Shown piece by piece: positions 2,764-53,506 of a DNA stretch of 64,000 bases. Position 1 is the stretch's first letter. The number at the start of each line of letters is the position of its first letter. The stretch is from Tilletia caries. Its lineage: Eukaryota > Basidiomycota > Exobasidiomycetes > Tilletiales > Tilletiaceae. The DNA lies in the NCBI GenBank assembly GCA_032718865.1, contig JALUTQ010000038.1, forward strand, positions 930,001-994,000, written 5' to 3'. The translations under genes and the position numbers were made by a program. Below the pieces are notes generated by a model, which was given only the letters and a program-made list of their open reading frames with translations, made no database searches and was not told the origin of the DNA.

Positions 2764-3057
2764 ATGGCCTCCGCCCCCAAGTTGCCCGCGGCCCTCGCGC
2801 CCACCGAGCAGGACATCTCCCTCCTCCTCGCCGCCCAGACCCACATCGGCACCAAGAACTCGGAGAAGGCGATGGGCAGCTACATCTACAAGCGTCGCGC
2901 TGACGGTGTCCACCTGCTCGACCTCGCCAAGACGTGGCAGAAGCTCATCCTCGCTGCCCGCGTGCTGGCTGCGATTGAGAACCCCGGAGACATCTGTGTC
3001 ATCTCGGGCCGCACGTACGGCCACCGCGCTGTGCTCAAGTTCGCCTCGAACACGGGC

Positions 3058-3092
<35 letters not shown>

Positions 3093-3660
3093 GTTCACTA
3101 ACCAGGGCACTCGTTCGTTCAAGGAGCCCCGTGTCATCGTTGTCACCGACCCCCGCGTGGACCACCAGGCCATCCGTGAGGCGTCCTACGTCAACATCCC
3201 CGTCATCGCTTTCTGCGACACGGACGCTCCCCTCCGGTTCGTCGACATTGCGATCCCCGGCAACAACAAGAGCGTTCACTCCATCGGTCTCCTCTGGTGG
3301 TTGCTCTGCCGCGAGGTTCTCCGCCTGAAGGGCGCCATCCCCCGCACTGAGGACGGATGGGGAATCATGGTCGACATGTTCTTCTACCGTGCCCCTGAGG
3401 AGGTCGAGCGTGAGCAGCAGGAGGCTCTCGCTGCCAAGGCTGCCGGCCAGCAGACTTCCGGCCAGGACGGCGACGCTGCCCTCGTTGGTGGTGACCTCGA
3501 CTACTCGATTACCGACGGCGCTGCCGGTACCCTCAACCCCGCTGTGGCCGCCTCCATCCCCACCGGAGGCAACCTGGACTGGTCCGCCGACGGCGCTACC
3601 GGCCAGGACTGGAGCGCTGCGCCTGCTGAGGGTGCCGAGCCTGCCGGTACCTGGGAGTAA
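2764..3660 (+). CDS. RPS0: Cytosolic small-subunit ribosomal protein S0/SA (uS2)
   Basis: Intronless gene of 298 residues, matching the family length. The uS2 fold is obvious from the N-terminal HIGTKN motif through [33 protein letters not shown] and [11 protein letters not shown] to the [14 protein letters not shown] segment. The acidic Gln/Ala-rich tail ends in tryptophan repeats (LDWSA, QDWSA, AGTWE), the pattern seen in eukaryotic laminin-receptor-type SA proteins. It is needed for 40S maturation and sits at the 40S head-body junction. Codon use is strongly biased to C-ending codons, as expected for high expression. The absence of an intron is notable in a genome where most neighbours have several. 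Confidence 0.98.
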
Positions 3661-4209
3661 ATGCTGTCGTCCACCGACGCCCGCATTGCACACCACACGC
3701 CCGCATGCCCCCCTACGCCTTCTTCCAAGCCGAACACTTCCCACTGGTCTGGCCTCGACTGTTCCGGCTCTGCGTCCCCTAGTCAAGGACGTACGAGAAT
3801 GGACTTCTGCTGAAGTCCATGCATTCGAGCTCCCATCTTCCGAGAATATTAATTCCAAAAAAGATCATAGGCCTCCCTTCCTTTGTCTCTTCTTCGCCTG
3901 CTCGCAGTGTGTATTACCAATTACCATGTGGTGGAGCGCCGGAGTCGAGCGGACTGCGTACGTAAGCGATATGAGAATCAGGGGGCGTTGGGGAGCCTTA
4001 AAAATCGATTAGAGACGGCCGGCTGTGAATTACAAAGTTTGTAATTTGAGCACCCTGGCCTCTCCAGTCTCCAGTTGTTCGCCCCCTTCATCTCTTGTTG
4101 AACTCCGAGCTCGACGACAGCGAGGCCCTTGATCTCGACACCGACAGCGACACCGATAGCGACAGCGACAGTCACGTGCTCGCCCACCGCCCACCGCCCA
4201 CCGCCCACG
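3661..4209. other. Intergenic: S0 3' UTR and lyase promoter
   Basis: No gene seen. It contains a perfect 19-bp palindrome (4028-4046) and, just before the lyase ATG, a degenerate GACACC/GACAGC repeat tract at about 4130-4175. Confidence 0.5.
4028..4046. promoter_or_regulatory. Perfect 19-bp palindrome upstream of the lyase gene
   Basis: AATTACAAA, a central G, then TTTGTAATT form an exact inverted repeat 164 bp before the lyase start codon, in otherwise G+C-rich DNA. A binding site for a dimeric regulator is the simplest reading. No factor can be named from sequence alone. Confidence 0.4.
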
Positions 4210-5643
4210 ATGTCGTACAGCCACCCGCAAGACACGTACACACACTCCAATGCGTCCCAGTTCGACGACCGGTACCAGCAGGGCGCCTACCGCGATGAGG
4301 ACGCCAACTCGTATCCCATGCGTCCATACGCCGACTCCTTCGACCAGTCCTCCCTCCACTCCACCTCCAAGCTAGCACCCCCGCAGGGACAGGGCGCCCC
4401 CGGTCTCGCCGGCTCGCCACTCGGCACCCCTTATCAGTACAACAATGCACAGTGGGAACCACCAACCGGAGGCCCACGAGCACCCCTCGCAGGCCCAGGC
4501 GCCGCTGCAGCACAGACAAGACAGTATCCCGCCCGCACCAAGGCAACCACCGCAAAGTGGAAGAAGATCGGCATCCCCATCGTCCTCGTCCTCGTCGTCG
4601 CAGGCATCGTCGGCGGCATCGTCTTCTGGAAACTCAACGCCAACAAAGTGACCGCCAACACGACTCCCGTGTCCGCCGGCTGGAACGGCGCACCCGCATC
4701 CCGACTCAGCGCCTACCCAGAAAACGTCCTCTCCGCAGCCTCCGCAGCCGCTGGCAAGGGGACGGGTGATCAGCTCGCTTTCTTGGGCACGGACCTCTAC
4801 GGAAACCCTGCCTTCAAGGCGAACGCGAATACTGCCAAGCCTTCCGCGGGAGGGGCCGAGCCCGGTGGATGTGCAGCAGACTCAGAGACTCCCTCCATGA
4901 ATCAACCACGCAGCCACCCGCGTCTCTTTGCGCCCAAGTCCCAGTGGGACTGTCTCGCAAACCGAATTGCAAATGACGCGTATCTCACTGTGTGGGACTT
5001 CTCCATCATGCAAAATGCGACCAACTACTTGGGGATGCCTCCCACCAACTACTCCATCGATGGCGGCTTCGGAGGCTCCGGCATTCTCGACGTCAGTAGA
5101 GAGGTCCAACTCCGCATAAAGACCTTTGCATACGCATACATGCGCACTCAGGATCAGAAGTGGGTCGACCGCGCCTGGCTCGAGCTCTCGACCGCAGCAG
5201 GTGCTACAAGCACTCCCTTCGGTCAGACTCCTGTCGCCGATTTCCCCAAGGCTGGTCAGAACCAGGCCCCACACTGGAATCAAGTCCACTTCCTCGACGT
5301 AGCAGAAATGACCGCGGCATTTGCCATCGGGTACGACTGGCTCTACAACCACTGGTCCGACTCTCAGCGCACCCAGCTCGTCGGCTGGATCAAGGACTAT
5401 GGTCTGACTCCCGGCATGGACCAATACACCACCGCCGACGGATGGTGGAAGATGCCCGGAAGCAACAATGGTAACTGGAACTGTGTTTGCAACTCGGGTA
5501 TGATCCTCGGCGCCCTCGCCATCCTCGGCGATGACACTTCCGGCATCGCAAATCAGATTCTCACCAACGCTGTTCCCAACATGAAGATCGGCTGCATGAC
5601 GGGCGCGTACGAAGACGGAACTTGGAGTGAAACTGCCAGTAAG

Positions 5644-5694
<51 letters not shown>

Positions 5695-7178
5695 TTATTG
5701 GTCATACGCTCTCTGGAATGTGTGCTCACCGCCGTACTCTCTCCACAACCAGATTACTGGTACTTTGGTACCGCTGCCCAGGCGCGCGCGGTCTCTGCTC
5801 TCACCACGGCCGTCGGCAGTGACCAGGGCCTTTCGGATGCCAACCCGAACTTTGCCAAGACGGGTCTCTTCCACATGTTCATCGGTGGTATGGCCGGTCT
5901 GTTCGCTTACGGTGACAACGGACCCAACAGTGAGTAGCCAAAGCGGATGTACACATGCAACAAAACGCCGAATGCCAAGGTTTCTTACTTTCGTACTTGT
6001 CCTTCTCCACAGAGTACTCCGCAAACGCCAACGGCATGTTCTACTGGGCGCGGCTCTACCAGAACCCAATCTATGCGCTGTACCAGCGTGATCGCTCAGA
6101 TGCAGCTGATCCGCTCAGCATGTTCTGGTACGACACCACGACCAAGGGCGGTTTCTGGAACGGTCTTGCCCTCGACCAATGGTTCAACAATACACAGGGT
6201 AACTGGGCCTCGATGCGAAGCTCCTGGACCGATTTCCAGGGTACCTACCTCGGAGTCAAGTCTTCGAACGGCACAGGGCACCAGACCCACGGTGACCTTG
6301 ACGCTGGCGACTTTGTGTTCGACGCTCTAGGTACCCGATGGGCGGGCGAGTACGGTAACGGCAACTACCTCTCCTACTGCTACTTTGGATGCCAGACCCC
6401 CGCCAATGGCTTCGACTCCGGCGAGCTCTACAACTCGACCCGGTACATGTACTACCGCAAGGCGACGCAAGGCCAGAACACGCTCGTGGTCAACAACCAG
6501 AACCAGCTGACGAACTGCCAACCCACGAACACATTTGCATCTACAAACCCGTCCCAGTCGGAGGATCCCAACTACGTGCCGAGCGCGTCTGATGTTGCGT
6601 ACTTCGCCACCGACATGTCCTCGTGCTATGCTTCGACCAGTGGAGGCACCACTGGCTTCCCCTCCGGCTCGCTCGTCCGTGGGATCCGGTTCCTCAACGG
6701 CCGGAGACAGATCCTGGTCCAAGATGACATCGCGTCGACTGTGACGGGTGACATTGAGTGGCGCGTGCAGACGAATGCGTCTGTTGCGATCTCCTCCGAC
6801 GGCCTGACGGCCACCTTGCAGCAGAAGACGATCACGGGCGCCAATGCCGGGTACGACATCAAAGCGGATCTCGACAAGGTGGAGACGGTCAAAGTGACGA
6901 TTTTGAGCCCTGCTGGTGCCAAGTTTGCCGCTGCGATCGCGAGCTCGAAGAACTTCCTCTACCAGAAGGACGATGTCTCGATGGCGCAGTCGAACAACAC
7001 CATTGTGGGCAACATGGGCGACGCGCATGCGACGGTGCTGAGCATTAAGCTGCAGGGTGGCTCGCAGCAGAGCGTGCAGGTGCTGTGGCAGCCGCAGTGG
7101 GCGGTGTTGTCGGCGGCGGATACGAAGACGCCGCCGCAGGTTGCGTTGAGCGATTGGTCGTTGACGAGCCACAACTGA
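4210..7178 (+). CDS. Membrane-anchored heparinase II/III-like polysaccharide lyase
   Basis: Three exons (4210-5638, 5753-5929, 6013-7178) encode 923 residues, and both junctions restore frame. Residues 1-115 are a disordered cytoplasmic tail. Residues about 118-141 form one membrane span after a KWKK stop-transfer, giving a type II protein with an extracellular catalytic part. The alpha/alpha toroid region shows SHPRLFA, GYDWLYNHWS, NNGNWNCVCNSG and YEDGTWSETANYWYFGT. The beta-sandwich region starts with the HGDLDAGDFVFDALG motif typical of chondroitin AC/alginate and heparinase II/III lyases. The N-T-W/N-W and H-x-D-x-G-D segments are where catalytic residues sit in that fold. The polysaccharide substrate cannot be inferred. 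ATG 4210 is the only suitable start. A secreted wall-modifying role is inference. Confidence 0.85.
5646..5687 (+). repeat. (CT)21 microsatellite inside lyase intron 1
   Basis: A pure CT run of 42 bp lies just downstream of the GTAAGT donor of intron 1 (5639-5752). It may act as a pyrimidine-rich splicing element and is likely to vary in length between strains. Confidence 0.95.
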
Positions 7179-8230
7179 GGAGGGGTTCGGGTTTCCCTTC
7201 CCTCCCCCCCCCCTTGCTGCCTTTCGTACCAAGATCCTTTTTTTTCTTGCCGGCGCGGGCGTTCCCCCATTGGATCAACTCCGACCAGATCTTATACGAA
7301 TCCACCGCCCCTGCCATATCGCAATATACACACAAACACACGTCGTACGCGGGGCCTACGCCTTTTTCGGCCCCGCCCTCAATCTCTCCGGACCCTTCGT
7401 TCTCCCATTCTCTTTACCCTAGCTGAAACGGACTTTCCCCTCTCACACACACACAAGCCTCTCTATCTCTCTCTGCTTCTCGATCTTTCTCCCCCTCCCC
7501 CCGGGCCCGCCAGATTGTTTCTGATTCTCTTCCCGCGCTTGGTCTCTTTCTCGCCGCTCTCCCCTCCTCCTCCCTGGGCCCTGTCCTGTGACTTTCCCCC
7601 TCATCAGTCCCTGCTGTTTTTTTGTTCTCTCATCCAACTATCCACTACTTACCGCTCTCTGTCTCTCAAGAAGCTCTTCCATTTGCCCTGCGCTCCATCT
7701 TGTCCTGACGCCTCCCAGCACTCAGCAGCCCCGTCAGTCAGCCCCTCGTCTTCGGTCACCTCCCCACTTTCACTCTTGACTTCCTGCGAGCTTCATCCCT
7801 TGAAATGAACCTAATGGACCTTTGCCCCTCTCAGACGGACTCGCCGGCGGGGTGCAAGGCGATCTGAGTAAAGCTGGATGAATAAATGAGATGGGTGGGT
7901 GGGTAACTCGAAGTTGGGAAGGCACGGGATAATGATGCTGGGAGCAAAAAAGAGAGATAAGAGGGAGGGGGGGGACAAAGCGAAAGAAGCAAAGAATGCA
8001 AGCTGCGTTTCGAGACGGGTGGGCAAAGAAATGAGTAAAAGGAGGCTGATGGGGCAAAGTAAGTGTGTAAGGCCCGTGAGGCGTGGGGAGGAGGCGAGAT
8101 GGTTTCGCGATTGAAATGCTGAAATGCTGGGTTGTGTTGGACGTCCGGGGGAGCCCAATGCAGATTGGTCATAAGCGATCTGTGTGACTTGGGACTTCGG
8201 GACTTCGGGACTTAGGGCAGCGACAGGGGT
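7179..8230. other. Convergent intergenic region, strongly pyrimidine-biased
   Basis: The lyase (+) and AVL9 (-) end toward each other here, so about 1 kb should hold two 3' UTRs. From roughly 7370 to 7800 the plus strand is mostly C and T. A 20-codon ORF (7805-7867) follows, then the bias reverses to purines. No protein frame looks real. A non-coding transcript is possible but unsupported. Confidence 0.4.
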
Positions 8231-45047: not shown

Positions 45048-48000
45048 TCAGCCATACCGCATCCCCGCCAACGCCTCCGCAGCACCTTGCTGATCACGCT
45101 CCTTCCCCTTCCCTTTTCCCTTCCCCGTCCCGCTAACCTCCACATGCCCGTCCACTTCCATCTCCGTGTCTCCTCCATCCGCAACCCCAATAGCCTGTTC
45201 ATCCCCTCCACCACAACCACTGCCAAGCGCACGCAGGTACGCCGTCCGCATCGTCGCCTTCGGCGCCCGTTTCCGCGTCCACGGCTCGAAGATCCCATGC
45301 GCGAGTCGCTCGAACTCGAGCTGGGCAGACGAGACGCTGATCCAACCCCGCTTAAGTAGCTTGGCTTCGAGTGTAGGCGGCCGAAACTGGGTCGTCGCTG
45401 TTGTCGTTGTCGTAGGGATTGAGATGCAGACCCCGCCCAGTGGTCCGTTCCACAATTCGGCGGGCAGGGGTAGGTCGGCCCGCTCCGAGGGAGAGAGTGA
45501 GCTATCGAAAGGCTGCTCGTTGTCATGAAAGATCGAGCTCAGGGCCAGGTCGTGCTGGGCTTCGGAGCCGCCGATCAGGATGACAGCCGAGGGTGTCCGG
45601 ATCGTCTCTTCTGGCTGTTTGGTGGCATCCCTGCTCGCAGCATTGCTGCTCCCCTCTGACGGCCCTTCCGCACCTCGGTCAGACTCGCTGAGATGTGACC
45701 GCGAAGAAGCCTTCATATTCCGAGGCAGATCCACCAGCGCACTAGACGGCTGCAGCTCAAAGCACGTCCCCTCCCCATCGGCATCCTCCGACGGCGGTCG
45801 CACAAAGTTCGTCAACTCCGAGAGGTCCATGCCTGGGTACGATCCGCAGACGACAACGGCACAATGGCCAAACCCAAGTTTCTTCACAGCCCTTGCCGCG
45901 GATCGCAACCCAATCGTCAGGCCAACATGCCACGCATCGCTTTGGGGCAGGACGATGACGGCCGAAGAGTCCCGACCGGGCTTGTTGAGTGGGCTGAAGT
46001 GGTCTGTAAGACAGCGTTCCAGAGCATGCGGGAGCGAGTGATGCGCAACACAGCGGGGAACAGCATGTGCCTCCTGCCGTCTCTGATTACCCTGCACCCG
46101 CACGCCTTCAGGCTCCAGCTCGGCTAAGCAGACCTGGTCGACCGCGCCGACGACGATAGCTTCCTCCGTCATGCTGAAGGTGAGATCTTCCTGCTTTACA
46201 ATTTCGAAGAGCCTACTTTGCAACTCGTAGGTGTGCGCGGGAAGAGCAGCACCTCCGAAGCTGTCGTCGCGGAAGCGATCCAGCATCGTCATCCGACCCG
46301 ATTCCATCTCGATATTCACAGAGTAAGGCAGACCAATTCGCTGGATCGCCTGCCGCAGCACCCGAGCTTGGACGAGATCTGGACTGGATCCAGATCCATT
46401 ATCTCCGCGTACCCCGCTGAACAGGACGAACTTGCGAGGCTTGATGATGCCCAGCTTGCCCGCAATCTCCGTCATCTCCTGTAAGCTGAGCTGTCCTGGC
46501 GCAGCGACCGACGGTTGGGCCGGGTGACCCACAGGCGAGAGAATAGGCTGGAACGGCCGACTGGGTTGTCCGATCTGCCCCATATTGATGGCGATGAGAG
46601 GTGGCCGCGAGGAGTCGGCTGCAGCGGCAGCGTTGACATGCGACGCAAACGAAAGCAAGTGCCAATTCTGATCGACCCGCAACGCTGTCCCGATCAGTTC
46701 GACGAGGTCTGGATCGAAACTGGAAGCGCGGTCGTACAAAGCCCGGGCATTGGGAGAGTCCCACCGCAGAGCACCTACAAGGTCGTGATAGGAACACATG
46801 ATCTTGGAGTTGCCCCTCCGACTTGCGAACTGTTTAGTTGCTTCCGGAGCCCATGCCAGCTCGAGATCGATAATCTCCACGCCCATGCTGAGAGCGATAT
46901 TCAAGAGAAGGAAGTAGAAGCCTTCGCTATGAGCCGACTTCATGGAACCGGAGGCGTGATCTCGATCATCGTGGTATCTGCCGCCTTCGCGCGACGTACG
47001 GACAGTGAAGATAAGTGGCAGATTCACACTCTTGCACAACGCTCGTGCCTTCTCGATCTGGATTGCCAGTTCAACAAAATCGATCTGCTGCGATCCCTGA
47101 ATCACGCCATGCTCGGCTAGGAGTGCCTCGTAGGCCTCTCGCGTGGTGCCAGCCATGCAATCGAGGAGATCGGCACGAAGCTCGACAGCGTCGACGCCCT
47201 CTACGACTTGTTCGAATAGTGCTGGGTCGACCTTGCGCAAGTCTGGGAAGGTGAGGGATAGGTATGACGTCTGGCCGGCCCGGAGCAGGGAGTCGCGGTC
47301 GGTTGCGTCTGCGATACCTGGCAAGGCCGAGACTCTTCTCCAGATGTCGTCGACAGAGTCCATCATCTTGTCATCTTTTTGACGGCCTTGTTTCTTGTCT
47401 TGCCCACGACCGGAGGACGAGGAGGTACCACCAGGCGGCGAGGTCATCGCTCCGGGACCATCTGTGGTCACAAAGTCGAGCAGGCGAAGGAAGGACTGGG
47501 CGACGCTCTTCAAAGCAAGAGGGTGTCTGGAAGCTGATCGTGGCTGGCTTGTGTCATGTTCTGCGAGCGCAGAGATGGGCTGCGTCAGGTTCGCAAATAT
47601 ACAGTTAGACGACATCCAGAAGAAGGGTTCGCGTCGCCTCCAGACCTTCACCGGATCTTCGTCGTATCGTTTCCTGTTTTGTTCAAGAGAAAGATACCGT
47701 GCGACCTCTTCGCGCTCCCGGACGACATGGATGACAGGATGTTTCAACTTGAGTGAGAAGAAGAGGGTCGGGATACGGGTATCATCTACCAAGCTTCCCC
47801 CACAGGAAATGATGGCATCGAAGGGGAATTCGGCGAGCAAGGACTCGAACACGGTGGCTTCTTGGTTGCAATATTCCTCGTAGCCGCTTTTGCTGATAAA
47901 TTCTTGTGCAGACATGCCGAGGTGATTGAGGAGAACCTTGTCCGCATCAAGGAAACGAAACCCAAGAGCTGAGCTGGCTATCAGTCCGAGTGTGGTCTGC

Positions 48001-49346
48001 GTAGATATGGAAAGCGAATGTTCAGTTGACATGGTTAGAAATCCGAGCTGCGCATGCTGAAATGCTCCTCGCACACACACCTTTCCGACTCCACGCATGC
48101 CTAATAGGATGATAGTCGATCTTTTATGCGGTATTGGGATCCGAAGAGCTCGCTTGTTGCTCTCAAGCACAGTTGAGAGGGCGTCTACGTTGATCGACTC
48201 CGGCCCGACACTGGCTTTTTTAGGAGCTTGGACTGGAGCTTGACGTGGAGCTTGGACTGGAGCTGTATTTGGAGTACGCAACTGGGAGGCTGGAGCTGTA
48301 CTTGGAGCGCGCGACTGGGAGGCTGGAGCTGTATTTGGAGTGCGCAACTGCGAGGCTACGAGCTTCGAGGCAGAAGCACGTGCGATCTCGAGAATCGCTT
48401 CCGAAGAAGGCAATGAACCGGAGGGATGACCCCCTTGGCTTCCAGACATCAAAGCATGGACAGCGTCAAGGAAGGATTGTGGAGGAGGCGGTATAATGGA
48501 GGGAAGGTCATCTTGGGATGAGACGCCAAAGTCATGGCGACCTACGGCATCAAGCAATGCCTGCGGAGGAGGCGGTATAATGGAGGGAAGGGCACCTTGG
48601 GATGAGACGCCAGAGTCAAAGCGACCGATAGCATCAAACAGTGACTGCGGAGGAGGCGGTATGAAGTTTGGTGAAATGAAGGCGGAAGCTGCAGCAGGAG
48701 ATATGTTGAGGAGGGAAGCTGGTTGCCGTGGGTCGTTGGCGAGCCGTGATGGAGGTGGAGGCATGCGCGCTGCAGATGATGATGGCGGGTTCGATGGGAG
48801 AAGGGGCGCACCAGAACTGAATCGTTCCGAGAATGCTGAGAGTGTGCGAGAGTACTGTGAGAGTGCATTGAGCTGAGTCAACGGATCGTCGCCTTCGCGC
48901 AATGTAGGGGGCGGGGGGAACCCTGGAGGGAAATTCAGTCCTGCGAAGGGTGTTCTGGAAGCTTCGGCTGATCTTGCATTCGCATCTCCCCGTGCTGACT
49001 GGAGCTGGGCTTGAAGACTCGTGGGGGCCAGTCCATCAGCCTCAGCCCGAATTGCATCTGACATGCCCGCATCCGCATCCGCGTCCGCCTGTATTGGTGC
49101 TGCGGATGATAACGACGTAGGCGTAGAAGTAGAAGCAGAAGCAGAAGCAGAAGCAGCTTCGAGTTGACCGCCTGCAATCGCTGTTGATGAAGGTGACTGT
49201 GCTGTCGGAGAAGGAGACGGTGCTCGGTCTGCCGTCCTAAGAGAGCGGGATGCCGCTGCAGCCGCAGCGGATGTCGGTGGATAGGGCGCTGCTGCTTGTC
49301 TCGCCGCTGCTGAGCTCGACGATGCCTGGTCCCGAATCACTGTCAT
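45048..49346 (-). CDS. qutR: Quinate-repressor (QutR/QA-1S)-like protein
   Basis: Two exons (49346-48081 and 47996-45048) encode 1404 residues. The last 980 match the C-terminal three domains of the AROM protein, the architecture of QutR. Shikimate-kinase-like: IILLGMRGVGK then TTLGLIASSALGFRFLDAD, ISCGGSLVDD and RYLSLEQNRKRYDEDP. Type I dehydroquinase-like: VDAVELRADLLD, LIFTVRTSREGGRY and IMCSYHDL. A diverged shikimate-dehydrogenase-like region follows. In Aspergillus and Neurospora such proteins repress quinate catabolism; no quinate genes lie near here. The N-terminal 330 residues are low-complexity with tandem modules. The 84-nt intron sits inside the P-loop, has no stop and keeps frame if retained. 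ATG 49346 is the first true ATG in the frame. Confidence 0.87.
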   Translation of the reverse strand: MTVIRDQASSSSAAARQAAAPYPPTSAAAAAASRSLRTADRAPSPSPTAQSPSSTAIAGGQLEAASASASASTSTPTSLSSAAPIQADADADAGMSDAIRAEADGLAPTSLQAQLQSARGDANARSAEASRTPFAGLNFPPGFPPPPTLREGDDPLTQLNALSQYSRTLSAFSERFSSGAPLLPSNPPSSSAARMPPPPSRLANDPRQPASLLNISPAAASAFISPNFIPPPPQSLFDAIGRFDSGVSSQGALPSIIPPPPQALLDAVGRHDFGVSSQDDLPSIIPPPPQSFLDAVHALMSGSQGGHPSGSLPSSEAILEIARASASKLVASQLRTPNTAPASQSRAPSTAPASQLRTPNTAPVQAPRQAPVQAPKKASVGPESINVDALSTVLESNKRALRIPIPHKRSTIILLGMRGVGKVCVRGAFQHAQLGFLTMSTEHSLSISTQTTLGLIASSALGFRFLDADKVLLNHLGMSAQEFISKSGYEEYCNQEATVFESLLAEFPFDAIISCGGSLVDDTRIPTLFFSLKLKHPVIHVVREREEVARYLSLEQNRKRYDEDPVKVWRRREPFFWMSSNCIFANLTQPISALAEHDTSQPRSASRHPLALKSVAQSFLRLLDFVTTDGPGAMTSPPGGTSSSSGRGQDKKQGRQKDDKMMDSVDDIWRRVSALPGIADATDRDSLLRAGQTSYLSLTFPDLRKVDPALFEQVVEGVDAVELRADLLDCMAGTTREAYEALLAEHGVIQGSQQIDFVELAIQIEKARALCKSVNLPLIFTVRTSREGGRYHDDRDHASGSMKSAHSEGFYFLLLNIALSMGVEIIDLELAWAPEATKQFASRRGNSKIMCSYHDLVGALRWDSPNARALYDRASSFDPDLVELIGTALRVDQNWHLLSFASHVNAAAAADSSRPPLIAINMGQIGQPSRPFQPILSPVGHPAQPSVAAPGQLSLQEMTEIAGKLGIIKPRKFVLFSGVRGDNGSGSSPDLVQARVLRQAIQRIGLPYSVNIEMESGRMTMLDRFRDDSFGGAALPAHTYELQSRLFEIVKQEDLTFSMTEEAIVVGAVDQVCLAELEPEGVRVQGNQRRQEAHAVPRCVAHHSLPHALERCLTDHFSPLNKPGRDSSAVIVLPQSDAWHVGLTIGLRSAARAVKKLGFGHCAVVVCGSYPGMDLSELTNFVRPPSEDADGEGTCFELQPSSALVDLPRNMKASSRSHLSESDRGAEGPSEGSSNAASRDATKQPEETIRTPSAVILIGGSEAQHDLALSSIFHDNEQPFDSSLSPSERADLPLPAELWNGPLGGVCISIPTTTTTATTQFRPPTLEAKLLKRGWISVSSAQLEFERLAHGIFEPWTRKRAPKATMRTAYLRALGSGCGGGDEQAIGVADGGDTEMEVDGHVEVSGTGKGKGKGKERDQQGAAEALAGMRYG
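48481..48668. repeat. 84-bp tandem repeat in the N-terminus of the QutR-like gene
   Basis: Copies start at 48481, 48565 and 48649 with the shared core GGAGGAGGCGGTAT. They encode 28-residue modules beginning IIPPPPQ and continuing LLDAVGR. The third copy diverges after the core. Confidence 0.85.
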
Positions 49347-49614
49347 GTCTTTGCTCGTACCCTTCGCGAGTCGCTGTCCGAGTCTGTCATGCAACTGCAA
49401 GTCCCGAAGAATGAATGAATGGTGTTCGTATCGCGCAGGCGCACAGGTCGACTTTCCAGGCGAGGGTCGAACCAAAATTCGAAATCTCGAACGGATAAAC
49501 GTTTGTTTGCTTACATCAGCGCGTGAAACTCATCGCTTGCCCTGCTTCCAAACAATCGCTTCCTCAATTTCAACGAATCCTTCCTTCCTTCATCGCTTCA
49601 CCGCTAACAGCAAG

Positions 49615-51972: not shown

Positions 51973-53506
51973 TCAAAGAAGACCGCCCAGACCCGCGCCA
52001 CCCAATAGACCGCCGCCGTTGCCGCCCAACAGGCCACCACCGGTGCTGCCCAACAAGCCGCCACCAGTGCCGCCCAAGAGGCCACCAGTGACCGAGTCGC
52101 CCTTGTTCCCGCTGAGCACGTTCAGGCCGACCTTGGCACCCTTAAGGTCGACGAGGTCGTTGTCCTTTACGATCGTCTTGCCCTTGTGGGAAGAGTGGTG
52201 CTTGTGGGACGATCTCCGGACGCAGCAGCCGTGCCGGGAGGTGCACTTCCACTTGGGGGTGTTGTCAGCGTGGCCGTCGCACTTGCCGTTGGAGCTCAGC
52301 AGGCAGATGTTGAGAGTGACGTCCTTGAGGTCGAGGAGGTCGTTGTCACTGTAGTAGGCGCTGCCGCATGAAGACTCGTAGGAGACTGTTCAGAGAGAAA
52401 GGAGCAAGGCAAGTTGGATGAGTAACAGGGTACAAAGTGAACGAGTGAGGTGAAGACGGGAGAGACTCACCACGCTTGTATTCGGCAGGGCATGACTGGT
52501 AGTTGCTGCTGCTACCGTGCCACTTGTTGGGGTGCGACTTGTAGTTGCCAGGGCGCGAGGTGGGACGGTGGTTCCAGTTGTGCGAAGGGCGGTACTCGTA
52601 GTTGTGGGGCAGCGAGATGCAGTAGTGAGACTTTCCAGAGAGCAGGTTCAGGTTGACACCGAGGCCCTTGAGGTCAATGAGGTCGTCGTCCGAGTAGCTG
52701 AAGTGGCTGCGGCGCTCCAAGTCTTCGCCGATGTTACCGATCAGCTTGACATTCTTGGCATCGACGAGGTCCTCATCGGCAACCTGGGTGATCTTGCGGC
52801 TGGGTTCCCGGCGGTCAAAGTCGTTAAGGGCGTTCAGCACAAGCTTGGCTCCCTTGGCGTCAATGAGGTCGTTGTCGGCTACTTGTGTAATCTTGCGGTG
52901 AGGCTCGCGGCGGTCAAAGTCGTTGAGGATGTTGCCTACCAGCTTGGCTCCCTTGGCGTCGACCAAGTCGTTGTCCGAGATCAGGTTGATCTTGTGGTAA
53001 GGTTCCCGCTTGTCGAGGTTCAATGCGTTGACAATGACCTTAGCACGCTTGGCATCGACGAGGTCGTCGTCAGCTACTTGGGTGATCTTGCGGTAGGGAT
53101 CCCGTCTGTCGAAGTCGTTCAGTGCGTTGACGACCACCTTGGCTCCCTTGGCGTCGATAAGGTCGTTGTCAGAGATTTGAGTGATCTTGTTGCAAGGCGC
53201 TCGCTTCTTCTCGAAGCTGTTGAGGACGTTGCCGACGAGCTTGAGCCCCTTGGCATCGATGAGGTCGTTGTCGGCGATCTGGGTAATCTTGGTAGCTGAT
53301 CGCTTCTCGAAGTCGTTTGCAATGTTGCCGATGACCTTGACGCTCTTCAGGTCGAGGCCGTCGTTGTCCGACTTGAGCTTGTAGTGGGTTGCGCTGCGCT
53401 TCGCTGGTGACGAGTTGGAAGACTCTGCGTGTGAGCGAGGGTGGGCAGCGGCGATGCTAGAGCCAATGGCCAGGAAGGCGACGGAGGTGGATAGGATAGA
53501 ACGCAT
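51973..53506 (-). CDS. Secreted Kex2-processed repeat protein (candidate peptide precursor)
   Basis: Two exons (53506-52471 and 52385-51973) encode 482 residues. A signal peptide (MRSILSTSVAFLAIGSSIAAA) is followed by a short propeptide ending AKR. About seven units of 28-33 residues then follow, each built around KITQVADNDLIDAKGAK with NALNDF. Nearly all end in a dibasic Kex2 site: EKR, KKR, DRR, DKR, DRR, DRR, ERR. Three more diverged DNDL.DLK units follow, separated by Cys-rich and Tyr/His/Asn/Pro-rich segments (SHKHHSSHKG). The C-terminus is a Gly-Leu repeat (GGGLLGG). This is the architecture of fungal KEP proteins, whose products act as signals, surface repellents or toxins. I recognise no named homologue; the peptide function is unknown. 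Confidence 0.85.

What the first reader, a model, noticed from the sequence alone, without database searches (positions are those of the whole stretch)
51973..53506. Candidate multi-peptide precursor with Kex2 sites between repeats
A signal peptide, seven repeats ending in dibasic sites, three diverged repeats, a Cys-rich segment and a Gly-Leu tail occur in one secreted protein. The DNDL.D.KG.K core is strongly conserved while boundary residues vary, as expected if the released peptides matter. Repellents and mating-type or toxin precursors share this plan, but the core motif matches none I know.
Basis: partly seen in the sequence, partly recalled or inferred. Interest (0 to 1): 0.85.

Follow-up and report, generated by a model that had tools for sequence, protein, structure and literature searches.

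The report
Smut-fungus precursor of secreted peptides
A wheat-bunt fungus gene encodes a secreted protein that looks built to be cut into seven similar short peptides plus a cysteine-rich remainder, one of a little-described smut-fungus family that probably coats the fungal surface like the known 'repellent' peptides.

Summary
Minus strand 53506-51973, one 85-bp intron, 482 aa: signal-like start, seven DNDL repeats each followed by KR/RR, three more DNDL modules (one in a Cys segment), Gly-Leu tail. It fits the KEX2-processed repeat proteins (KEPs). The genome appears to be a wheat-bunt Tilletia: one paralogue matches a T. laevis protein at 399 of 400 residues. Cut sites are kept in orthologues (16 of 16 scored linkers in three proteins) but are rare in Cys-only relatives that share the motif. 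New: all seven predicted peptides begin X-Ala or X-Pro, the Ste13 trimming signature, and repeats show dS about 1.1 against dN 0.3. Profile comparison joins the motif to GHNV-NENK repeats of Thecaphora frezii; a 2022 paper reports a Rep1 (repellent) orthologue in these bunts, gene not named in the passages read. Best reading: repellent-like surface peptides plus a Cys-bearing C-terminal fragment with the same motif. Cleavage, assembly and function are untested; structure prediction failed and peptide conformation is unresolved. New variant of a known kind.

The parts
51973..53506 (-). whole gene: exon 1 53506-52471, exon 2 52385-51973, 482-aa predicted secreted precursor
   Evidence: gene model; orthologues P0001/P0002 51/54% identity over 93/94% of the query
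52386..52470 (-). intron, 85 bp, GTGAGT...AACAG
   Evidence: orthologue P0001 aligns across the junction
53444..53506 (-). signal-peptide-like N-terminus, residues 1-21 (cut after IAAA assumed)
   Evidence: by eye; similar starts in P0001 and P0002; SignalP not available
53306..53395 (-). predicted peptide 1, residues 38-67 (30 aa)
53210..53299 (-). predicted peptide 2, residues 70-99 (30 aa)
53108..53200 (-). predicted peptide 3, residues 103-133 (31 aa)
53012..53101 (-). predicted peptide 4, residues 136-165 (30 aa), with an extra KR inside at 153-154
52913..53005 (-). predicted peptide 5, residues 168-198 (31 aa)
52814..52906 (-). predicted peptide 6, residues 201-231 (31 aa)
52715..52807 (-). 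predicted peptide 7, residues 234-264 (31 aa)
52709..53401 (-). stretch holding the eight dibasic sites that bound the peptides: residues 36, 68, 101, 134, 166, 199, 232, 265
52637..52690 (-). diverged module 8 (core DDDLIDLK), in the C-terminal piece
52222..52621 (-). Cys segment, residues 296-400 (8 of the 9 Cys), spans the intron
   Evidence: Cys columns shared in alignment A2
52294..52347 (-). module 9, inside the Cys segment (core DNDLLDLK)
52111..52164 (-). module 10 (core DNDLVDLK)
51976..52086 (-). Gly-Leu tail, residues 446-482
   Evidence: DNA repeat of 3.8 copies of 24 bp; Gly-Leu tails also in P0001, P0002, P0008, P0009

Best explanation
It is a secreted Kex2-processed repeat precursor of a wheat-bunt Tilletia. 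Inferred steps: (1) signal peptide removed; (2) kexin cuts after KR/RR, freeing seven 30-31-residue peptides and a C-terminal piece of up to 216 aa; (3) a carboxypeptidase removes the basic ends; (4) a Ste13-type dipeptidyl aminopeptidase removes the N-terminal X-Ala or X-Pro, leaving 28-29 residues; (5) the peptides and the Cys-bearing C-terminal fragment, which carries the same motif three times, associate at the cell wall or hyphal/spore surface as a repellent-like amphipathic coat. Shown by sequence: anatomy, conserved sites, trimming signature, constraint, homology within the family. Inferred: all processing, disulphides, assembly and function.
For: Sites: [KR]R in 16/16 short linkers of type A (window, T. 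horrida P0001, T. maclaganii P0002); X-A/X-P after the last dibasic in 15/16 against 142/1475 background, Fisher 1.7e-14; window alone 6/7, the exception being the junction into the C-terminal piece. All seven window peptides begin X-A/X-P. Counting every [KR]R listed for the three type A proteins, 21 of 32 are followed by X-A/X-P: 7 of 11, 8 of 11 and 6 of 10, all of them in the N-terminal repeat half. Cys-only relatives P0007, P0010, P0012, P0013: [KR]R in 1 of 17 linkers. Repeats 1-7: pooled pS 0.576, pN 0.251, JC dS 1.09, dN 0.30. The genome holds a kexin-like ORF (Peptidase_S8 plus P domain) and a DPPIV-type peptidase ORF. Hydrophobic alternation at positions 9/11/13/15 ranks 1 of 35 in six of six groups. 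Type A modules match the GHNV-NENK Kex2 repeats of P0016 (Thecaphora frezii) and P0017: hhalign probability 94%, score 27.0 against at most 12.8 in 40 column-permuted controls. PMC9172201 passage: a putative Rep1 (UMAG_03924) orthologue by tBLASTn in the wheat bunts. The plan matches Rep1 (repeats of 34-55 aa, final 228-aa piece; PMC4617103 passages).
Against: Windowed hydrophobic moment of the window peptides (6 scored) favours a helix (0 of 500 shuffles reach it at 100 degrees) and not a strand (486 of 500 reach it at 170 degrees); P0001 the same (4 and 498), P0002 weaker (29 and 384), type B and C neither clearly. This speaks against a cross-beta picture for this gene. AlphaFold2 failed: mean pLDDT 38.4 and 49.1. 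X-A/X-P is nearly absent from type C (1/63) and absent from group E (0/5), and from the type A dibasics around the C-terminal part. One P0002 junction reads SR, not dibasic. The extra KR at 153-154 would break repeat 4. No expression or peptide data.
Confidence: 0.55

Rival explanations
1. Signalling peptides: an alpha-pheromone-like KEP whose trimmed peptides are read by a receptor of the fungus or of the host.
For: Kex2 plus X-A/X-P is the layout of ascomycete alpha-pheromone precursors and of some basidiomycete KEPs (PMC6339444 and PMC9769878 passages); type A 15/16 and type B 11/14 junctions.
Against: The seven repeats are not near-identical (mean 60% identity over 23 residues), the peptides are about 28 aa, and the same motif sits in Cys modules without flanking cuts; basidiomycete mating pheromones are a-type (PMC6339444 passage). 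Type C paralogues have almost no trimming signature (1/63).
Confidence: 0.15
2. Apoplastic effector or antimicrobial/membrane-active peptides, in the manner of other KEP products such as candidalysin.
For: Predicted secreted protein of a crop pathogen; window peptides have a strong helical moment; the Cys segment resembles small Cys-rich secreted proteins by eye.
Against: Peptides are anionic (mean net charge -2.2 in the window and in both orthologues); amino-acid change between repeats is held down rather than raised; a relative (P0013, E 6.9e-3 by single sequence, three cores) is in Meira, which as I recall is not a smut pathogen.
Confidence: 0.17
3. An uncut repetitive cell-wall protein: the repeats work as a chain and the dibasic sites are incidental.
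For: Cys-only relatives use the same motif almost without cut sites; repeats alone do not show cleavage.
Against: Dibasic sites far above chance (1 of 20,000 shuffles; 11 against 3.5 expected), kept in register across species, genes and repeat types; the X-A/X-P placement makes sense only after cutting.
Confidence: 0.1

Closest known systems
Rep1 repellent precursor of Ustilago maydis (UMAG_03924)
   Same: secreted, amphipathic repeats separated by Kex2 sites, long C-terminal piece (216 aa here, 228 aa in Rep1; PMC4617103 passages); a Rep1 orthologue is reported in the wheat bunts (PMC9172201 passages)
   Different: DNDL core; X-A/X-P at the peptide starts (not compared with Rep1); the C-terminal piece here still carries the repeat motif, whereas that of Rep1 is described as without similarity to its repeats (PMC2515848 passage); sequence homology to Rep1 not tested
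Hum3 of U. maydis
   Same: 17 amphipathic repeats of 31-36 aa, 14 separated by putative Kex2 motifs (PMC4617103 passage)
   Different: Hum3 repeats are followed by a hydrophobin domain; no Pfam hydrophobin match here
KEPs with Ste13 signature in basidiomycetes (PMC6339444; PMC9769878)
   Same: Kex2 sites followed by X-A/X-P
   Different: the examples named in the passages read are short peptides; here they are about 28 aa with a DNDL core; supplementary tables could not be consulted
GHNV-NENK repeat proteins P0016 (Thecaphora frezii) and P0017
   Same: homologous module by profile comparison, KR after most modules, P0017 has a C-terminal Cys module
   Different: ENKLVDLS core in place of DNDLIDAK; DUF7430 above its cut-off in P0016 only (38.7 bits, cut-off 27), not listed for the window protein

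Membership tests
KEX2-processed repeat proteins (KEP, pipeline of PMC6339444 section 24) | at least four fragments of two or more residues after cutting at KR/RR | tested here: met
   12 fragments after residue 21
KEX2-processed repeat proteins (KEP, pipeline of PMC6339444 section 24) | at least three similar fragments; repeats at least 15% of the protein | tested here: met
   9 fragments with a core, last piece left out, make 73% of the precursor (two of the nine belong to the C-terminal part); similarity judged by the core pattern, not by their FIMO step
KEX2-processed repeat proteins (KEP, pipeline of PMC6339444 section 24) | signal peptide and no membrane anchor (SignalP/TMHMM) | not testable with these tools
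   signal-like start by eye, similar in orthologues; programs not available
KEP with Ste13 signature | X-A or X-P after the Kex2 dipeptide | tested here: met
   7 of 7 predicted window peptides; 15 of 16 scored type A junctions
Repellents (Rep1 type) | amphipathic repeats separated by Kex2 sites with a long terminal piece | tested here: met
   comparison values from PMC4617103 passages
Repellents (Rep1 type) | sequence homology to Rep1 | not testable with these tools
   Rep1 sequence not at hand and its primary papers not held; indirect only:
Repellents (Rep1 type) | surface-active amyloid-like fibrils on hyphae | not testable with these tools
   needs peptides; strand preference itself is inconclusive
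Hydrophobin fusion (Hum3 type) | hydrophobin domain | tested here: not met
   four Pfam families listed at E up to 1, none a hydrophobin
Ustiloxin-type RiPP (dikaritin) | UstYa/DUF3328 enzyme encoded near the precursor | tested here: inconclusive
   0 matches in the genome, but the control rang nowhere either

The most novel reading that the evidence does not exclude
An old smut-wide surface-peptide family in which one precursor encodes both the building block and its own anchor: kexin frees many amphipathic DNDL peptides, while the Cys-bearing C-terminal fragment of the same molecule shows the same motif and seeds or tethers their assembly. Type C genes would be near-pure monomer suppliers with variable module number (15, 17 and 27), type A/B genes the ones that also make the anchor, and Rep1 a derived relative whose anchor lost the motif.
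Probability: 0.2. Interest if true: 0.72.

Novelty: new variant of a known kind. Interest (0 to 1): 0.52.

Why it matters
Kex2 repeat precursors are widespread in fungi, but most have no known function (PMC9769878 abstract), and the trimming signature in basidiomycetes is unexplained. The window protein has no Pfam match above its cut-off. The family spans Tilletia and Meira and, by profile, Thecaphora, and holds the same motif in two contexts, free peptide and Cys module. That makes the peptide-to-surface question testable in the wheat bunts and may show where repellents came from.

Tried and rejected
Structure: AlphaFold2 on P0003 (12 rows) gave mean pLDDT 38.4, and on the exon-2 part (15 rows) 49.1; no fold search was made because such models give meaningless matches. 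Pfam on the window protein: four families, each below its cut-off. On relatives, TcfC on P0007 (34.9 bits, cut-off 29.4; one 28-residue stretch) and DUF7430 on P0016 exceed their cut-offs among the six proteins; neither was pursued further. PDB by profile: 0 matches. Prokaryote contigs: 318 stretches matched a pattern, none a relative. UstYa and DUF7430 searches of the own genome gave nothing, with silent controls. Paper text searches for DNDLID and for GHNV with Ustilago: 0 papers each. Concerted evolution: mean repeat identity is 0.60-0.66 within and 0.55-0.62 between proteins, so not supported. Pheromone and toxin-like readings are kept as rivals.

Counts to read with care: one search scored only linkers of at most 40 residues (A 16 of 25, B 14 of 27, C 63 of 64, D 0 of 17, E 7 of 22, of which 5 with [KR]R); of the long ones [KR]R occurs in A 8 of 9, B 4 of 13, C 0 of 1, D 1 of 17, E 7 of 15. 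Its core pattern misses one degenerate module each of P0001 and P0002. Group B holds the near-identical pair B_C39/P0003; taking B_C39 out by hand leaves 10 linkers, 8 with X-A/X-P. Group C holds two near-duplicate genes. Whole-protein [KR]R counts of the Cys-only proteins are 3, 0, 2, 2 against 2.0, 0.1, 1.1, 0.9 expected. In one search only 6 of the 7 window peptides were scored in the moment test, because repeat 4 is split by its inner KR. Permuted-column controls were run for 3 of the 15 profile pairs. Each protein search scored only the 7986-7995 candidates sharing most words.

Full report
WHAT IS THERE. The gene runs on the minus strand from 53506 to 51973: exon 1 53506-52471, intron 52470-52386, exon 2 52385-51973, 482 aa. 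Residues 1-21 look like a signal peptide (by eye). Then follow a 16-residue segment ending in KR, seven repeats each closed by KR or RR (sites at residues 68, 101, 134, 166, 199, 232, 265), and a C-terminal piece of 216 aa with three further modules, a Cys segment (8 of the 9 Cys) and a Gly-Leu tail. TRF sees 5.4 copies of 99 bp at 72% match, so the repeats are diverged.

MORE THAN CHANCE. All 7 linkers after cores 1-7 carry [KR]R; 1 of 20,000 shuffles reaches 7. Over 23 aligned codons of the seven repeats, pooled pS is 0.576 and pN 0.251 (JC dS 1.09, dN 0.30). Synonymous sites have changed far more than the peptide, so the amino-acid sequence of the repeats is constrained. D at core positions 0, 2 and 5, K at 7 and 10 and N at 14 are identical in all seven repeats.

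THE FAMILY. The protein search gave 13 hits at E up to 1: T. maclaganii P0002 (54% identity) and T. horrida P0001 (51%) are the closest; then T. laevis P0003, two more T. horrida proteins (P0005, P0006), seven without a name (P0004, P0007-P0012), and Meira miltonrushii P0013 (E 6.9e-3). The profile search added P0014 and P0015; a search with a paralogue added P0016 (Thecaphora frezii, E 1e-7) and P0017. In the own genome (38.1 Mb, 40 contigs) relatives lie at C39:511k, an inverted pair at C1:812k/815k, an inverted pair at C25:324k/334-337k, and C39:51k (the tool calls such counts lower bounds). The C39:511k protein differs from T. laevis P0003 at 1 of 400 residues, which suggests the T. caries/laevis/controversa group. 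One search returned no near-identical copy of the window protein, so it may be missing from public gene sets.

FOUR ARCHITECTURES. Type A (window, P0001, P0002) and type B (P0003-P0005, C39:511k) have Kex2 repeats plus a Cys module plus a final module. Type C (C25a 17 modules, C25b 27, C39 15) is almost only Kex2 repeats; P0006 is a type C relative with a Cys module. Type D (P0007, P0010, P0012, P0013) has Cys modules with the same core and no Kex2-bounded repeats. Short linkers with [KR]R: A 16/16, B 14/14, C 63/63; D has no short linkers, and 1 of its 17 linkers has [KR]R; a mixed group E (P0008, P0009, P0011, P0014, P0015) has 5 of 7. So the dibasic sites go with the peptide-releasing types, not with the motif as such. 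One junction of P0002 reads SR in place of a dibasic and was not scored.

THE TRIMMING SIGNATURE. After the dibasic, type A has SA 4, DP 4, EP 4, KA 2, AP 1, SH 1: 15 of 16 with A or P in second place against 142 of 1475 elsewhere in the same proteins (Fisher 1.7e-14). Type B: 11 of 14 (8 of 10 without the duplicate row). Type C: 1 of 63. Group E: 0 of 5. In the window gene all seven predicted peptides begin X-A or X-P, and the dibasics inside repeat 4 and in or before the C-terminal piece (153, 265, 344, 402) do not; the same split is seen in P0001 (8 yes, 3 no) and P0002 (6 yes, 4 no). This is the Ste13 signature as defined in PMC6339444 (passages and section 24), described there for some basidiomycete KEPs; PMC9769878 (abstract and passages) reports mushroom peptides that likely arose by such trimming. 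The genome has a kexin-like ORF (Peptidase_S8 133 bits, P domain 92 bits) and a DPPIV-type ORF (DPPIV_N 243 bits, S9 60 bits); whether the latter is the Golgi enzyme was not tested.

LINK TO REPELLENTS. Module profiles of the six groups align to one another in 15 of 15 pairs (probability 94-99%); type A against the GHNV-NENK group (P0016, P0017) is the weakest, 94%, score 27.0, with at most 12.8 among 40 column-permuted controls. P0009 is intermediate by eye (GHNV followed by DDDLIDAKD). PMC9172201 (passages) reports, for 56 characterised proteins searched by tBLASTn (at least 60% coverage, over 20% identity), six with putative orthologues in the wheat bunts, one of them Rep1 (UMAG_03924); the gene is not named in the passages read, and a member of this family is the natural candidate (inference). 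Rep1 gives amphipathic peptides that form surface-active amyloid-like fibrils for attachment and aerial hyphae (PMC4617103 passages).

WHAT SPEAKS AGAINST. Conformation is unresolved. Family-wide, hydrophobic residues alternate at 9/11/13/15 (rank 1 of 35 in each of six groups), as in a strand, but the windowed moment of the window's own peptides is helical (0 of 500 shuffles reach it at 100 degrees; 486 of 500 at 170 degrees). P0001 shows the same (4 and 498), P0002 a weaker form (29 and 384); type B (384 and 73) and the type C sets lean to neither significantly, and the type C sets fall below their shuffles at 100 degrees; the GHNV group is strand-like (3 of 500 at 170 degrees). AlphaFold2 failed twice. 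The inner KR at 153-154 is found in repeat 4 only. KR at 344 is not kept in P0001 or P0002, RR at 402 is; if both were cut, the C-terminal piece would fall into three fragments with one core each. Of five neighbouring ORFs of 280 aa or more scanned between 40 and 64 kb, two have Pfam matches, shikimate-pathway domains and an Na/H exchanger; this limited look shows no processing gene nearby.

LITERATURE. Tilletia with Kex2 gave 2 papers, by title on killer toxins and KP4 (listing). Tilletia with repellent gave 8, of which only PMC9172201 looked relevant by its listing. DNDLID gave none. PMC7329392 and PMC6339444 do not mention Tilletia in their main text; their supplementary tables were not consulted, so prior listing of these proteins there cannot be excluded. 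Rep1's primary papers (Wosten 1996, Teertstra 2009) were not held and are known here only through other papers.

VERDICT. A KEP by the criteria that could be tested, in a new variant: Ste13-type trimming sites plus the same motif in free peptides and in a Cys-bearing remainder. Most likely repellent-like surface peptides (0.55).

Noticed in passing
L027 (ORF 2858-4657 +) and L028 (ORF 3419-6124 -), i.e. G000:C25:324k and 334-337k: Inverted pair of type C precursor genes, alike at the N-terminus, with 17 against 27 modules: strong copy-number variation of Kex2-bounded repeats.
   Followed up: partly
L026 (G000:C1:812k - and 815k +): Inverted pair of very similar type B genes; each copy's open frame is interrupted at a different place, either assembly error or decay. 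Left as found.
   Followed up: no
P0007, P0008, P0011, P0012, P0014 (unnamed proteins): Several relatives share a second segment of the kind DAALDVLRRANYN followed by KR, ahead of the Cys part; possibly a further Kex2-bounded unit (seen by eye).
   Followed up: no
P0015: A diverged 197-aa relative (5 contigs, E 7.2e-6) with INILSRRGD-type junctions and Ser runs before the core; its source organism is unknown.
   Followed up: no
window 45051-49529 (-): Open frame with shikimate kinase and type I dehydroquinase domains near the finding; an ordinary neighbour.
   Followed up: partly
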